This document shows, piece after piece, positions 28,040-42,265 of a DNA stretch of 64,000 nt. A program made the position numbers and the translations under genes. Below the pieces are notes generated by a model. It had not been told where the DNA came from. It saw only the letters and a list, made by a program, of their open reading frames with translations, and did not search any database. The stretch comes from Oscillatoria sp. CS-180 (lineage in GTDB: Bacteria; Cyanobacteriota; Cyanobacteriia; Phormidesmidales; Phormidesmidaceae), in assembly GCF_028330965.1 (NCBI RefSeq), contig NZ_JAQMUB010000081.1, positions 186,001 through 250,000 on the forward strand, given 5' to 3'. The stretch's first letter is position 1; each line of letters starts with the position of its first letter.

Positions 28040-28143
28040 TATAGCCGTCGCCAGCTTTGTTAGGACAAGACGGCGGGCCATCGGGCTGTCCGCTAAGCAC
28101 CCGGATGCAACTGGGTGCATTAGCCTAGATGGCCAAAGCTATA
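28040..28143 (+). repeat. Dispersed ~104-bp element, copy C (reference copy)
   Basis: Ends TATAGCCGTCGCCA and TGGCCAAAGCTATA form a 14-bp imperfect terminal inverted repeat with 11 matches. Inside, TTAGGACA (28060-28067) can pair with TGTCCGCTAA (28087-28096) with a 2-nt bulge, and GCACCC (28097-28102) pairs with GGGTGC (28113-28118). The whole could fold as a three-way junction. It ends 23 bp before the GTG start of the membrane fusion protein. Confidence 0.85.
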
Positions 28144-36718: not shown

Positions 36719-37287
36719 TTCGGCAGTCCAGCCCGCACTAGGGTGTAGAACTTTTTGACAGCTTCCAACGTCAGTAGAATTGAGCAGAACAGTTTTACTA
36801 TTGGGACCTTATTCAGATCCTTTAAGGAGAGTTCTAAACAAGAAATGACCTGAGAAAGCTAAGGCGGTAGGTTACGGTCGACATTGGGAAACCCAACGAA
36901 TAGAGGCTTTGAGGATGTTGGGTCTCGTTCCTCGACACCAACCGACGTGGGGATATTCGTTGCCAGAAAACGCCTAAACCTGACAAAACCGCTCTGTTTG
37001 ATGTCTGAGTTAAGTGGGTCAGGACTCATTCATGGAGCTATTTGCTTCCTAGAGAGCATAAGATAGCATTGCCTATCCTGCCTGTAGATCGTTTGCGTAA
37101 ATCTTGCCGGTATAACTTTTACCCCTTGAAGTGTAAAACCCTGCTGGTCTCCAAGCACTTTCGTTCAGGCCAGCTCGTTGGCTGAGAAGTATTGAGTCCC
37201 GTACGCTTTCACGATTTTCCTGTTGTTGACCTTCCTCCGTCTGCTCTGGTTGTTTCTACCCTGTGGTGTATTTTTGTGTAAAATCCT
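36719..37287. other. Gene-free stretch with an interspersed palindromic repeat
   Basis: A 569-bp region between the permease and the RusA-like gene. No supportable ORF is present; a 60-codon frame at 36884-37066 starts inside the palindrome. The palindromic repeat at 36884-36943 is the only clear element. I see no promoter I could defend. Confidence 0.5.
36884..36943. repeat. Palindromic intergenic repeat, GTTGGGT...ACCAACC type
   Basis: A small hairpin TTGGG/CCCAA (36884-36896) is followed by GTTGGGTCTCGTTCC (36917-36931) and CTCGACACCAACC (36931-36943), an imperfect palindrome. From memory, GTTGGGTTTCGTTCC-like words are a very common short intergenic repeat in cyanobacteria. Confidence 0.6.
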
Positions 37288-37707
37288 GTGCTGCCCTTCG
37301 AGTTTATTCTGACTGGTCGTCCTATCTCTAACCAAACTAAAGATAAATCCAAACTGCAGGTGTGGATTGCGGCGGTGCGTCGGGCAGCTAATCAATCATG
37401 GCCGAATGATAATCCTGTTGACGACAATGTGCGTATCAAATTGACCCATTATTTTGATACTCCCAGCGGTAAAGAGGAAAATGTCCCAGACAGCGACAAC
37501 ATTGTCAAACCCATACGGGCAGCCCTAACGGGCATTGTCTATGAGTACGACTACCAGGTCACAGATGTCACCAGTCGCCGCCGCAATTTGAACGGTTCAT
37601 TTAGAGTTAAAGGAATCTCCTTAACCTTGGCGGAAGGCTTCATTAAAGGCGAAGAATTTGTCCATGTTATGATCGAAGTTGCTCCAGATCCATCTGATCT
37701 GAGGTAG
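37288..37707 (+). CDS. RusA-family Holliday-junction resolvase
   Basis: RusA enzymes cut four-way DNA junctions as metal-dependent homodimers. The 139-aa protein fits: a beta start (LPFEFILTGRPIS), and the catalytic run PDSDNIVKPIRAAL then YEYDYQV, supplying Asp68, Asp70, Lys74 and Asp88. In E. coli RusA a further Asp follows shortly after the Lys (AxLDAL); here that position is Ala (PIRAAL), so activity may be altered. It starts at GTG 37288; no ATG lies near. It is 24 bp from a PD-(D/E)XK-like gene on the same strand. RusA genes are often phage-derived, but no other phage gene is visible here. Confidence 0.85.
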   Translation: MLPFEFILTGRPISNQTKDKSKLQVWIAAVRRAANQSWPNDNPVDDNVRIKLTHYFDTPSGKEENVPDSDNIVKPIRAALTGIVYEYDYQVTDVTSRRRNLNGSFRVKGISLTLAEGFIKGEEFVHVMIEVAPDPSDLR

Positions 37708-37731
37708 TGAGTTCTTGAGGCGATCGCTTCT

Positions 37732-38064
37732 ATGGGTTTCCGCAGCCACCAATCAAGTTTGGAGCACCGTCGGGTTCTCACCCTTGCCAGAGAATACCGC
37801 AGCGAAGGGTATGACGTTACGGTTTATCCAGAAGCGGCGGATCTGCCTGACACGCTATCAAAATGTCCGCTTGACTTAGTTGCCCGAACAGACGATCAGG
37901 TCATTGCGGTTGAAGTACGAACACGTCAAAGCTTGACTCGGAACGGCTCAGAAGATTTACGCCGGATGGCCGCAAAAATCACTGAAATTCCCGGCTGGCA
38001 ATTTGAGCTGGTCGTTACGAATCCTCGTAATCCCAAAGAACCAGAGATTAGCACTACACCCTAG
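37732..38064 (+). CDS. Small PD-(D/E)XK nuclease-like protein
   Basis: The 110-aa product has a shape seen in small restriction-endonuclease-like proteins: a helical N-terminus (LEHRRVLTLAREYRSEGYDV), then CPLDLVARTDDQVIAVEVRTRQSL. Asp48 and Glu61 sit at the usual D and E positions of a PD-(D/E)XK core, while the Lys is replaced by Arg63 (EVR). I cannot tell whether it is active. It follows the RusA-like gene by 24 bp and precedes dispersed copy D. A function in DNA repair or recombination is a context guess. Confidence 0.65.
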   Translation: MGFRSHQSSLEHRRVLTLAREYRSEGYDVTVYPEAADLPDTLSKCPLDLVARTDDQVIAVEVRTRQSLTRNGSEDLRRMAAKITEIPGWQFELVVTNPRNPKEPEISTTP

Positions 38065-38080
38065 CGAGCAGACTCTTTGG

Positions 38081-38168
38081 ATAACCGTCACCCGTTCCAT
38101 TAGGACAAAACGGCAAGCTATCTAGCGATGGACTAAGCCCCTGAACGCTATTTGGTGCCTTAGCCTAG
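38081..38168 (+). repeat. Dispersed ~104-bp element, copy D, left part (split copy)
   Basis: It begins ATAACCGTCACCCGTTCC, contains ATTAGGACAAAACGGC and GACTAAGCCCC, and runs to TTAGCCTAG, where the match with copy C breaks. The rest (ATGGCCAAAGCTCTA) resumes at 38397-38412. Together the two parts are 104 bp, exactly the length of copy C. Confidence 0.8.
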
Positions 38169-38392
38169 TGCAGCGTCAAGATTGAAATTGTGAGTCAATC
38201 CAGCTCTTGCAATTGAGTTGAGGCTGACTGCTTTGGCCCCCAGCCCCCATTCGGGGGAGCCAATCCCCGGAAGTCCCCAGAGTGGGGAATTTAGGGGGCG
38301 AATGCACGCTATTGGCTGAACCAAGAGAAGCGTATTGTCTGTCTCAACACTTGCAGGGATAACTCACTCACAATTGCCAACTTGGCAGACCA
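38169..38392. mobile_element. 224-bp non-coding element inserted in copy D (MITE-like)
   Basis: Its two ends are inverted repeats of each other: TCAAGATTGAAATTGTGAGT (38175-38194) against, on the other strand, CCAAGTTGGCAATTGTGAGT, with the last ten bases identical. It is flanked by CTAG on both sides (38165-38168 and 38393-38396), as expected of a 4-bp target duplication. It contains no ORF of note. Its centre (about 38237-38302) is a C-rich/G-rich palindromic stretch of a kind common between cyanobacterial genes. Confidence 0.75.
38237..38302. repeat. C-rich/G-rich palindromic repeat inside the 224-bp element
   Basis: Runs such as CCCCCAGCCCCCATTCGGGG and CCCCAGAGTGGGGAATTTAG alternate and can form several hairpins. 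Words such as GGGGAATTTAGGGGGC recur widely between cyanobacterial genes, from memory. Confidence 0.6.
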
Positions 38393-38396
38393 CTAG

Positions 38397-38412
38397 ATGG
38401 CCAAAGCTCTAT
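38397..38412 (+). repeat. Dispersed ~104-bp element, copy D, right part
   Basis: ATGGCCAAAGCTCTAT completes the element after the 224-bp insertion; with the duplicated CTAG before it, it restores the CCTAGATGGCCAAAGCT seen in copy C. Confidence 0.75.
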
Positions 38413-38431
38413 TGACGTATGGCGACACTCC

Positions 38432-40594
38432 TCACGACGAGGGAGATTCGGGTGGTGCAACAGGGCTACTGCTAGCACCCGACGGTACTGTCTGAGCTGA
38501 CACACGAACTCGCTTCGGTGGTTTTGGCTCAGGGGGCAATTTAGGCTCAATTTTGACCCGTTGAATACTCGGTGGGCGTCCCATGCCATAAGTCAGTTGA
38601 TGGCTTTGGGCCAGCATCCAGAAAAACAGAGCTGGATTGTTCCTTTCCAGCCAAGCTTGATTTTGATTTAACCAGTTGGGGAACCAGCCAAAAAGCCACA
38701 GTAAAAAAGTTTGCAGCGTGTAATTTAGATAGCTGCCAACCCACCGTATGAGATCCTTTGTGCCTGCTAGCTCCCAAATCCAAGACAGCAAAGCGGGATT
38801 TTTGCTGGCAGCGGTGAGCGCCATACGATTGAATTCGCTCCAACTGGCCTTGTCTTTGATAAAGCGCTCAGCAACATCGGGCGTTTCAGACTCCAAAATG
38901 CCGAAGAAAGTGTTGAGCATGGAGTTGATGCGTGCTGGAGCAATGTTCTTGCCCGTTGGCACCATCATGCCTTTGGAAAAGAGCCACGTGATCGCGATAT
39001 TACTTTGAAACGCGCGGACTTGGTTCAGGTGCTTAGCCTGGAGCAAGTCATAGCGCAGCGCCACGTCTAGCAAACTCGTTAAACGCGACAGATTCCGAAT
39101 CAGAGAACCAAACCCAGTAAAAACTAGAGGAGACTGAAGGGATGCCGCATCGCCGATCGCCACCAGCCGATCAAAGGCAACAGTGCGATCGTCCTTATCC
39201 AAGCTGAAATACCCTGGAATATAGCCAAACGTTGGCTTTCGCCAGGTCAGTTTGTCCATATTGCATCGGCGATACTCCGGCAGAATATGGAAGAAGTCCT
39301 CATACATTGCCAGCAGCGAACCAGGGTTATCAGGGTCAACCTGATGATAGTGAAACAGATAAATAGTCAGTTCGTTTCCTCGCGCGGGAAACAGTTCCCA
39401 AATGAGCTGACGGCCACGTGAAATATCACCGTGACTAAAGAGGACATCACCGTAGGTTGAATCCCAAACCTCTGGTTCAAAACCGCCCGAAACACAGGCT
39501 CCAACAGTAGGACATACGCTGTCGAAGGCGCGCCCGTTATTGAGCTGCCAAGCAATAGGCGATGCCGTCCCCATCGCGTCTACAAGCAGACGGCCCTGGA
39601 CCACCTCAGCGTCTCCACTGCCCCGTCGCCGAACCTGAACAGTGACCTCTGTGTCACTGACATGGGCTGACTCAAACTCAGTTTCATCCCAGATGGTGCC
39701 GCCTGCCGCCGTTAGTTTTTCTCCACAGCGCTTCAAGACAGCTTCCGAATCGAGCGCAATATTAAGAACCGTTGGCGTATGCAAGACAGGTGCTTTAGCA
39801 ACAGACGGATTGTTTGCGTCGAAAAACTTGTTGTAGCCGTCCTCATACTCGCGGGCAATTAGCGATTCGAACTCTTCAGCAGTGAACAGCCCGAGATCAA
39901 TCAAGCTCTGAAACTCTACTCGTGAAATATTCCATTCGCGATTCATCCGACCAAAAGGAAGCCGCTCAATGAGCAGAACTTTATACCCTAAATTAGCCAT
40001 CACAGCGGCATGGATAACACCCAAAGCACCACCAACATAGATGAGGTCGTATTGCTCACCTGACTCAGCGGGAGGGGCCTCTAAGGCGGTATTGTCTGCT
40101 CGAAAAATTACTTGTTTGGGCTTTTTGGGCGATCGCACGCTATCACGCCAGCGCTTTTCCCACCAATAAACTCGCTCCAGATCAGCTTCACCATTAGGCA
40201 TCCGCTGAAAATAAGTTACGGTTTTCGGAAACTTTGTTGCTAAAGCTTCAAAAATAGTCTGCTGCTCTGGCTGAAACGCGGGCATCTGCCCGTAATCCGG
40301 AGGAAAGGCCTGACGAATTTGCTGCTCAAGCTGCTGTAGGAGACGAGACTCCTGCGGCAGCGATCGCTCGCTCCAGCGAAACACCTTGAGATACGTTGTC
40401 CGCTGCAAAGACCACACAAAAATGGACAGAGCAGTTGGCAAAGGCATCCGACTGTCTCGACTGGGAAACTCAACCAGAACGCCTTCAGTCGTTGCAGTGA
40501 CTTTGCCTGCTGGCGCTACGAACGTGTTTTGTAGCCAAGCACGAACAGAGGCTGTATTTGGCGTTGGCACCTCTATATAAAGCAGCTCTTTCAT
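38432..40594 (-). CDS. cruA: Lycopene cyclase, CruA/CruP family (FAD-dependent)
   Basis: Members of this FixC-like flavoprotein family cyclise lycopene ends in carotenoid synthesis. The 720-aa product has an N-terminal extension of ~180 aa (starting LLYIEVPTPNTASVRAWLQ), then a Rossmann FAD fold with YDLIYVGGALGVIHAAVMAN and an acidic strand end LLIERLPFGRMNREWNISR; the RMNREWNISR motif marks CruA/CruP. Later blocks LVDAMGTASPIAW and VAIGDAASLQSPLVFTGFG fit the FAD-binding end. The C-terminal ~150 aa has hydrophobic stretches (FLLWLFGWFPNW) and a basic Pro-rich tail. The long N-terminus favours CruA over the shorter CruP, but I am not certain; CruP orthologues may act differently. It starts at ATG 40594 and is monocistronic. 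Confidence 0.72.
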   Translation of the reverse strand: MKELLYIEVPTPNTASVRAWLQNTFVAPAGKVTATTEGVLVEFPSRDSRMPLPTALSIFVWSLQRTTYLKVFRWSERSLPQESRLLQQLEQQIRQAFPPDYGQMPAFQPEQQTIFEALATKFPKTVTYFQRMPNGEADLERVYWWEKRWRDSVRSPKKPKQVIFRADNTALEAPPAESGEQYDLIYVGGALGVIHAAVMANLGYKVLLIERLPFGRMNREWNISRVEFQSLIDLGLFTAEEFESLIAREYEDGYNKFFDANNPSVAKAPVLHTPTVLNIALDSEAVLKRCGEKLTAAGGTIWDETEFESAHVSDTEVTVQVRRRGSGDAEVVQGRLLVDAMGTASPIAWQLNNGRAFDSVCPTVGACVSGGFEPEVWDSTYGDVLFSHGDISRGRQLIWELFPARGNELTIYLFHYHQVDPDNPGSLLAMYEDFFHILPEYRRCNMDKLTWRKPTFGYIPGYFSLDKDDRTVAFDRLVAIGDAASLQSPLVFTGFGSLIRNLSRLTSLLDVALRYDLLQAKHLNQVRAFQSNIAITWLFSKGMMVPTGKNIAPARINSMLNTFFGILESETPDVAERFIKDKASWSEFNRMALTAASKNPALLSWIWELAGTKDLIRWVGSYLNYTLQTFLLWLFGWFPNWLNQNQAWLERNNPALFFWMLAQSHQLTYGMGRPPSIQRVKIEPKLPPEPKPPKRVRVSAQTVPSGASSSPVAPPESPSS

Positions 40595-40901
40595 TACGGC
40601 AATCTTTAAGACCAGACGTTCTTAAAAAGGATTCTCAGGCGTTCCAGCCACTCCGCTAGGACCAAACCGCGATCGCCTGTCACCTCAATTTTGTTATCTT
40701 TCCTACATTAAACCCTATGCGTTCACTGCTTGCAGTACAAGCCAATTTCAGAGCATAGTCAGATCTGGGGGGAACAAACCCGGAAATTCGAGGGCTAGCC
40801 TGTCTGGAATCCTGATTCATTCTTCAGCCCTAGAATTAGCCACAGACGGCGCTTAACTTCAAGCACTAGCGTCTTTATAAAAAGCAGTTGTCCAGAATGA
40901 C

Positions 40902-41004
40902 ATATCACTTTAGCCATCTAGGCTGGCACAACCATTAGATCCAGGTCCTTAGCGCCTCGCCAAACGGCTCGCCGTCTTGTCCTAACAGAACTGGCGACGG
41001 CTAT
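40902..41004 (-). repeat. Dispersed ~104-bp element, copy E
   Basis: Inverse orientation. It starts ATATCACTTTAGCCATCTAG, contains GGTCCTTAGCG and GGCTCGCCGTCTTGTCC, and ends AACTGGCGACGGCTATG. The half with GTCTTGTCCTAACAGAACTG is almost identical to the same part of copy C. Confidence 0.8.
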
Positions 41005-41224
41005 GAGTCGAGGCAGCCAATCGCTTCCGTCTTCTGCAAGGCACAACCGCTAAGAGCCATTTATCGACATCTCGCATTCAACACAACATCTTACATTTGC
41101 CCTTAAATCAGCTAGGATTGGGAACTTCGACCTCAAAATCCTCGAATTTAGAGAGCAAGGGTTAAAGCAGTCAGCATCAGCTCAACTGCAAGATATGATC
41201 TGATGCGATCGCGCCCCAAATCAA

Positions 41225-41410
41225 TCAACGATTCAACCGCAGAGCGAGACTATAGACGGCAAGTCGCTTCACATCTTCGTACACGACACTGTCACCTTGG
41301 GCAGCTCGGCGCACCTCATTAGCGCCAATGAGAAAAGCGCTCCAAATCGCAACAATGACGACCAAACGGCGACAGATAGCTAGCTTGCATAGCACTGAAG
41401 GCTTAAACAT
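41225..41410 (-). CDS. Possible small membrane protein (61 aa)
   Basis: A 61-codon frame with an N-terminal positively charged part (MFKPSVLCKLAICRR) and one hydrophobic stretch (LVVIVAIWSAFLIGA), then a soluble tail. It looks like a small inner-membrane protein, but there is no clear ribosome site upstream of the ATG and no recognisable family. It may be chance. Confidence 0.3.
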   Translation of the reverse strand: MFKPSVLCKLAICRRLVVIVAIWSAFLIGANEVRRAAQGDSVVYEDVKRLAVYSLALRLNR

Positions 41411-41665
41411 ACAAAAGTATTCTTGAAAACGTCATCTTAAACCTGTCTGTATCAATATAGTCTTCATATTTGGTAACTGCCAGTATCACGCGCTCGATCT
41501 TTGATATTCAGAAATTTTGTTACAGCTTCTGGCCATCTCACTGCCATAGTCTGAGGAAAACACGGAAAACTCAGCGATTTCAAACCCTGCCTTGCGAGAC
41601 AATTCAAAGTTTTTTTGATATCAAAATTAATTATCAAAAGTATAAGAAAAACGATAAGGCAATGA

Positions 41666-42265
41666 TTAATCAGGTTCTCGCTTCAGACGCCTTGGGTGGT
41701 TGCGATCGCGAGGACTTGCCTGAGTCTGATACCATCTCCGCCACCCACGAGACGTTCGCAACGCCAGCCAAAGGAGCAATAAGGCAATGAGTCCACCCTG
41801 TTGGGGGGCATCAAAAGCGAACAAAACGAGACAGACACAGAGGAAGTCTTCGGCAAAAATGAGCCACGGAGAGGGCCTTTTGAGACGATATAGCCAACCA
41901 ACCTGTACCAGGTGGATAACTAGGGCCAACAGTCCACCTAGCCCCCCTAAGAGGAACATTAGCCCAGTGTCTACGTTAAATGTGCGAGCAACGGTAATCC
42001 CAGCGATCGCCCCTACGGCAGGACTCAGAAACATTTCTGCGCTTTGTATGAAACGCTGCACAATAGACTGCTTTGAAAACACCAGTTCAATCAGCGTCCA
42101 ACTCACCAATGCGCCAACCACAACAGAAGGGGGAAACTGAGACAAGATCGGTACTTCGGCCCACAAATTACCGGAAACAAACCCAATGATCAAAAGCGGT
42201 AAGGCCAATCTAAACCCAGCGGCTGCCGAGATGGATAAAACGGCTAATAACTCAGTGATAATCAC
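41666..42265 (-). CDS. DUF4126 family membrane protein
   Basis: The product has about five membrane segments, with the family-typical opening LLAVLSISAAAGFRLALPLL and a loop LSQFPPSVVVGALVSWTLIE, then FLSPAVGAIAGITVA. No biochemical function is known for DUF4126. The frame is open from ATG 42319, but 18 residues of unrelated character (MSYVERDSV and on) would precede the family start; GTG 42265, with AAGGG upstream, gives the usual short N-terminus, so I use it. The C-terminus is basic (RRWYQTQASPRDRNHPRR). It diverges from the rhomboid gene, the next on the plus strand. Confidence 0.8.
   Translation of the reverse strand: MIITELLAVLSISAAAGFRLALPLLIIGFVSGNLWAEVPILSQFPPSVVVGALVSWTLIELVFSKQSIVQRFIQSAEMFLSPAVGAIAGITVARTFNVDTGLMFLLGGLGGLLALVIHLVQVGWLYRLKRPSPWLIFAEDFLCVCLVLFAFDAPQQGGLIALLLLWLALRTSRGWRRWYQTQASPRDRNHPRRLKREPD

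What the first reader, a model, noticed from the sequence alone, without database searches (positions are those of the whole stretch)
38081..38412. Nested insertion: a 224-bp element splits copy D with a CTAG target duplication
Copy D matches copy C up to CCTAG, then a 224-bp segment (38169-38392) with long imperfect terminal inverted repeats (last ten bases ATTGTGAGT-type identical on both arms) intervenes, and the match resumes at CTAGATGGCC. Removing the insert and one CTAG restores an exact 104-bp element. This gives the order of events (the 104-bp family is older) and defines a second small mobile element with its exact ends.
Basis: seen in the sequence. Interest (0 to 1): 0.7.

Follow-up and report, generated by a model that had tools for sequence, protein, structure and literature searches.

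The report
Small jumping element inside another
A 226-base non-coding DNA element has jumped into a second, smaller repeated element in a cyanobacterium-like genome; it looks like a transposase-less passenger of a common kind of bacterial transposon, and the smaller repeat seems to be a favoured landing site for it.

Summary
The nested insertion is real. A 226-bp element (38168-38393) splits 104-bp copy D; without it and one duplicate, 104 nt remain that align to the 104-bp consensus with no internal gap. The insert belongs to a MITE-like family with at least 22 loci in this genome; ten aligned copies are 6-10% from their consensus.

Its ends, TA|GTGCAGCGTCAA and TA|GTGGTCTGCCAA, are of IS630 (Tc1/mariner) type. 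In relative G006 an IS630-family element has the same first 12 bases, and a 133-bp MITE there shares 31 terminal bases with it. No such partner was found in the own genome.

Corrections: the duplication is better read as TA inside a preferred CTAG than as 4-bp CTAG; and "the 104-bp family is older" fails for the families, because at G000:C31:132959-133300 a 104-bp copy sits inside a 226-bp copy.

Extra: 7 of 22 loci sit at the same CTAG of different 104-bp copies, both orientations, more than a rough expectation. No orthologous empty site was available.

Verdict: real, mostly ordinary, modest hot-spot twist.

The parts
38168..38393 (+). 226-bp MITE-like element (224 bp if CTAG is counted as the duplication)
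   Evidence: 37 matches in own genome; ends aligned over copies
38168..38197 (+). left end, GTGCAGCGTCAAG...
   Evidence: 21 of 30 identical to the other arm as inverted repeat; first 12 bases equal to an IS630-family end in G006
38364..38393 (-). right end, GTGGTCTGCCAAG... on the minus strand
   Evidence: pattern found in 7 of 57 genomes of the family, own included
38165..38168 (.). left CTAG; its TA (38166-38167) is the likely duplicated target
38393..38396 (.). right CTAG; its TA (38394-38395) is the likely duplicated target
38237..38299 (+). G+C-rich inner palindrome, a repeat that also occurs alone in relatives
   Evidence: outside the own genome the matches fall in this part (query about 63-142), save one end match in G012
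38081..38168 (+). first part of the 104-bp repeat, copy D
   Evidence: 79.5% to the consensus over 88 columns
38397..38412 (+). last part of the 104-bp repeat, copy D
   Evidence: gap-free continuation when joined to 38168
40901..41004 (-). 104-bp repeat, copy C, uninterrupted
   Evidence: 85.7% to the consensus over 40908-41004; aligned with D

Best explanation
The insert is a MITE: a 226-bp element too short to code for a transposase, moved in trans by an IS630-family (Tc1/mariner-type DDE) transposase that recognises ends of the GTGCAGCGTCAA / GTGGTCTGCCAA type, cuts it out and joins it to a TA, usually within CTAG, duplicating the TA. Here it landed in the CTAG near the end of a 104-bp repeat, itself probably another MITE family. 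Shown: the multi-copy family, its ends, its target, the nesting in both directions, and transposase elements with the same end motif in a relative. Inferred: which transposase moved it, cut-and-paste movement, past activity, and the reason for the recurrent use of the 104-bp repeat.
For: At least 22 loci in the own genome with precise ends next to TA/CTAG in different flanks. Gap-free restored site at copy D. First 12 bases of the left end equal those of element L177 of G006, a match reached by 1 of 5073 TA-anchored places in the window, presumably the element itself; right end 10 of 12 to L181 of the same genus, reached by 2 of 5073. L177 carries an HTH ORF and a DDE_3 ORF, the second above the NCBIfam IS630 cut-off (128.6 against 100 bits). 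G006 also holds a 133-bp MITE sharing 31 terminal bases with L177. IS630-family elements duplicate TA (passages of PMC2170065); a title in its reference list speaks of preference for TA in CTAG. Own-genome IS630 elements L062 and L063 have CTAGTGG / CTAGTGC ends with GTCAA at the same offset.
Against: No element with both a transposase and these exact ends was found in the own genome: of 6 DDE_3 loci none showed the GTGCAGCGTCAA end, and the nearest relatives of the L177 DDE ORF are 45-47% identical. Beyond the first dozen bases the similarity to L177 is modest (19-20 of 29). L008 fits a 4-bp duplication. Copies are 6-10% diverged, so there is no sign of recent movement.
Confidence: 0.85

Rival explanations
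1. The element is moved by a transposase that makes a true 4-bp CTAG duplication, for instance of IS5 type (YTAR target, recalled).
For: CTAG stands on both sides in several copies (L001, L003, L004, L006) and L008 has CTAC on both sides.
Against: L002 and L027 have different letters on the two sides; elements with the same end motif and CTAG flanks carry IS630-family transposases.
Confidence: 0.1
2. The D, L006 and L022 cases are one nested unit (226 within 104) that spread as a whole by the ends of the 104-bp repeat, not separate insertions.
For: Same position and same orientation in L001, L006 and L022.
Against: The host parts are 61-66% identical to each other but 72-83% to the consensus, and the inserts L001 and L006 are no closer to each other than to others (85.0%). 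The opposite orientation occurs in L002, L013 and L017. The insert of L022 is cut short, so it was not in the insert table.
Confidence: 0.1
3. The segment is a structured-RNA or regulatory hairpin repeat spread by recombination, not a transposable element.
For: It folds nearly end to end as one hairpin, z -4.6 as single-stranded DNA, and holds a G+C palindrome known also alone.
Against: Precise ends at TA/CTAG in different flanks, gap-free restored site, no Rfam match in 37000-42000 at gathering thresholds. End-to-end hairpins are usual for MITEs (recalled).
Confidence: 0.04

Closest known systems
IS630-family insertion sequences, with ISY100 (ISTcSa) of Synechocystis as the studied cyanobacterial case (passages of PMC2170065)
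   Same: TA target; ends of one subgroup (L177, L181, L062/L063 of the genomes searched here) share the TAGTG...GTCAA motif
   Different: No transposase gene; 226 bp against about 1.2 kb for L177; the ISY100 ends were not compared by sequence
133-bp and 134-bp MITEs of G006 and G011 found here (L162, L120)
   Same: TAGTGGTCYGTCAA at one end and TAGTGCAGCGTCAA at the other
   Different: Shorter; interiors not compared beyond the printed sequences; G006 has a matching autonomous element
Cyanobacterial MITEs in print: those of Anabaena sp. 90 (passages of PMC3542288) and Nezha (title only, in the reference list seen)
   Same: Short multi-copy non-coding elements in cyanobacteria (147 complete or partial, 77-541 bp, in Anabaena sp. 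90)
   Different: Those of Anabaena sp. 90 were reported without evident similarity to the ends of that genome's ISs; no sequence comparison with either was made here

Membership tests
IS630-family MITE (226-bp element) | Multi-copy, short, with terminal inverted repeats | tested here: met
   22 loci with at least one end; arms 21 of 30
IS630-family MITE (226-bp element) | TA duplicated at the insertion site | tested here: inconclusive
   TA flanks most intact ends, CTAG often; L002 and L027 favour TA, L008 favours 4 bp, others damaged
IS630-family MITE (226-bp element) | Ends shared with an IS630-family transposase element | tested here: met
   12 of 12 first bases with L177 of G006, transposase checked; the right end fits other members better (10 of 12, L181)
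IS630-family MITE (226-bp element) | Autonomous partner with the same ends in the same genome | tested here: not met
   0 of 6 DDE_3 loci in own genome; draft of 102 contigs; usual for MITEs but not required of them
IS630-family MITE (226-bp element) | Mobilised by the transposase | not testable with these tools
   needs an assay
IS5-type element with YTAR duplication (recalled) | 4-bp duplication equal on both sides | tested here: inconclusive
   agrees in CTAG copies and L008, disagrees in L002 and L027
104-bp repeat as an IS630-type MITE | Ends shared with an IS630-family transposase element | tested here: inconclusive
   by eye only: TATAGC...TTAGGACA shared with the ends of L141 and L155 of G338; no control was run

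The most novel reading that the evidence does not exclude
Two non-autonomous transposon families in one genome use each other as landing sites: a palindromic CTAG in the abundant 104-bp repeat is a recurrent docking site for the 226-bp MITE and for other short elements with similar ends, while the 104-bp repeat has also inserted into the 226-bp MITE. The repeat would act as a safe harbour that draws IS630-type insertions away from genes.
Probability: 0.4. Interest if true: 0.5.

Novelty: new member of a known kind. Interest (0 to 1): 0.36.

Why it matters
It gives the ends, target and probable transposase family of a MITE for which my searches showed no description, corrects the duplication length and the order-of-events argument, and gives a countable case where one bacterial repeat family is a recurrent insertion site for another. 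If the hot-spot holds, abundant palindromic repeats may steer IS630-type transposition, which can be tested with a transposase and a plasmid carrying the repeat.

Tried and rejected
Counts of copies are lower bounds: the genome search scored 40 of 65 candidates for the 226-bp query and 40 of 362 for the 104-bp consensus.

Plasmid and phage collections: no match. Left-end pattern, exact, in genome contigs: 0 stretches; near relatives of this genome may be left out there.

Autonomous partner: not found in the own genome. In G011, 10 of 23 DDE_3 matches were looked at and their elements had other ends. The single matching left end in G012 lies beside an ORF that I would call IS6-like from recall, with no IS630-type ORF noticed next to it.

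Orthologous empty site: the gene at 38432-40594 matched in 18 of 19 genomes, own included; 11 relatives' loci were fetched and none has the same neighbours in the flanks held.

Two exact or near-exact 15-base left-end matches (L198, L205) were left out of the count, because no further element sequence was found there.

Composite spreading of a nested unit, a hairpin-RNA reading and a 4-bp duplication were weighed (see rivals). Rfam at gathering thresholds over 37000-42000: nothing.

Literature: searches were listings. Passages were seen of PMC2170065, PMC10969869, PMC3542288 and PMC8024623 (of no use). The Nezha paper and the IS630 target papers were seen only as titles in reference lists.

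Full report
What is there. The window lies at G000:C21:186001-250000 of a 6.53-Mb genome in 102 contigs. CTAG stands at 38165-38168 and 38393-38396; the segment between has outer arms that match as inverted repeats at 21 of 30. Joining 38081-38168 to 38397-38412 gives 104 nt that align to the 104-bp repeat consensus at 83 of 104 columns with no internal gap and to copy C at 77 of 107 columns.

The insert is a family. In the own genome 37 matches pass E 0.001; 40 of 65 candidates were scored, so this is a lower bound. I count 22 distinct loci with at least one recognisable end: L001-L010, L011 with L012 as one, L013-L022 and L027. Of the 37 rows, 24 belong to these loci (L028 is the far end of L009); the 13 others were dropped: 6 fetched without a recognisable end (L023-L026, L029, L030) and 7 not fetched. 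L011 and L012 are contig ends that overlap within one element. Two further 15-base end matches (L198, L205) had no more of the element and were not counted. Ten aligned copies are 6.4 to 10.2% from their majority consensus, 80.8 to 89.6% identical in pairs. L017 and L027 look like short internal-deletion forms with both ends.

Ends and target. The left end reads TA|GTGCAGCGTCAAG...AATTGTGAG; the right end, on the other strand, TA|GTGGTCTGCCAA...AATTGTGAG. The base outside TA is mostly C, giving CTAG, but is T in L002 (one side), L015 and L027 (one side) and G in L008 (one side); in L002, L005, L007, L009, L013, L014, L017 and L020 one junction is damaged or lacks TA in register. A true 4-bp duplication needs equal letters on the two sides. 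That holds for the CTAG copies and for L008 (CTAC/CTAC) and fails for L002 and L027. With the IS630-type ends I read this as TA in a preferred CTAG; it is not proven.

Transposase. The own genome has 6 DDE_3 loci. None showed the GTGCAGCGTCAA end; L062 and L063 have CTAGTGG / CTAGTGC ends with GTCAA at the same offset and IS630-family ORFs (checked on L063). In G006, L177 and L185 are elements of about 1.2 kb that start TAGTGCAGCGTCAA. L177 carries an HTH ORF and a DDE_3 ORF; the second passes the NCBIfam IS630 cut-off, the first does not alone. The first 12 bases of the window element's left end equal those of L177; of 5073 TA-anchored places of the window 1 does so, presumably the element itself. 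Over 29 bases the match is 19, and 20 with the other end of L177. The right end fits L181 of the same genus best (10 of 12; 2 of 5073 places reach that), L177 poorly (7 of 12; 89-97 places). In G006 a 133-bp element (TAs included) shares 31 terminal bases with L177 at one end and 24 of 30 at the other: a transposon-and-MITE pair with this end type. In G011, 12 places match the right-end pattern; L120 is a 134-bp element whose other end is TAGTGCAGCGTCAAG. The right-end pattern, up to 3 mismatches, is in 7 of 57 genomes of the family, own included, with no hit of the reversed control. The left-end pattern, up to 2 mismatches, is in 2 of 388 genomes of the class, own included. The closest relatives of the L177 DDE ORF in the own genome are 47 and 45% identical.

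Order of events. For copy D the 104-bp repeat was there first. For the families the claim fails: at G000:C31:132959-133300 (L009, L028) element positions 224-28 are followed by a 104-bp copy, 81% to consensus, and then by positions 28-1. No clean duplication is seen there (GA before, TA after). The two families were thus mobile in overlapping times.

A recurrent site. 7 of the 22 loci sit at the CTAG at about 86-89 of a 104-bp copy: L001 (window), L002, L006, L013, L017, L018, L022. In a scan of the direct 110-base flanks, six of these (all but L002) score above the best of 700 shuffled flanks (28); L002 does not, because a second element of about 155 bp, with a TAGTGGTCT end, lies between, and the repeat is found beyond it at E 9e-21. 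L013 has repeat sequence on one side only (also matched as L057) and L018 rests on short matches (E 0.002 and 0.007). Both orientations occur, 4 (L001, L006, L018, L022) and 3 (L002, L013, L017). Five host bodies compared are 72-84% to the consensus and 60-73% to each other, which speaks for separate insertions. In the window 3 of 169 CTAGs are at this site of the repeat; with that as expectation 7 or more of 22 has a binomial probability of 7e-8. Caveats: the expectation rests on three sites, one of them copy D; the idea came from the data; the window was picked for this finding. The 104-bp consensus folds with the CTAG in or beside a stem (z -2.9), as does window copy 28040-28143 (z -3.7), but copy C does not fold better than its shuffles (z -1.3). 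A structural reason for the preference is a guess.

A third layer. Bases 38237-38299 are a G+C-rich palindrome that occurs alone elsewhere: 13 of 59 genomes, own included, match the element, and outside the own genome the listed matches fall in this part, save one end match in G012. All ten aligned copies have it, L013 in shortened form, so it was taken up before the family spread.

The 104-bp repeat. 40 of 40 scored candidates matched in the own genome, of 362; among 38 other genomes 7 have matches, 1 to 11 each. Its TATAGC ends resemble those of IS630-family elements L141 and L155 of G338 by eye; I ran no control.

What it works like and what it is. It works like a MITE of the IS630 (Tc1/mariner) family. 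Membership rests on ends and target; no partner with the same ends was found in the own genome, and movement was not shown. It is a new member of a known kind; the reciprocal nesting and the recurrent docking site are the less usual parts.

Noticed in passing
L009/L028, G000:C31:132959-133300: A 104-bp repeat inserted into a 226-bp element, the reverse of the window's nesting.
   Followed up: yes
L002 (about 1740-1894) and L234 (from 341): Other short elements with TAGTGGTCT / TAGTCGTCTGTC starts at the same CTAG of 104-bp copies.
   Followed up: partly
window 38237-38299: G+C-rich palindrome inside the element that occurs alone in relatives.
   Followed up: partly
window 41164-41193: A 30-nt fragment of the 226-bp element (90%) 2.8 kb from copy D, minus strand.
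   Followed up: no
L062/L063, start of contig G000:C21: Two neighbouring IS630-family copies with CTAGTG ends, head to tail.
   Followed up: partly
own genome, 104-bp repeat: 362 first-look candidates in this genome (40 scored) against 1 to 11 matches in 7 of 38 other genomes: looks like a burst in this species.
   Followed up: partly
L011 (C17) and L012 (C50): Two contigs end inside one 226-bp element at a perfect inner palindrome, so they are probably neighbours.
   Followed up: no
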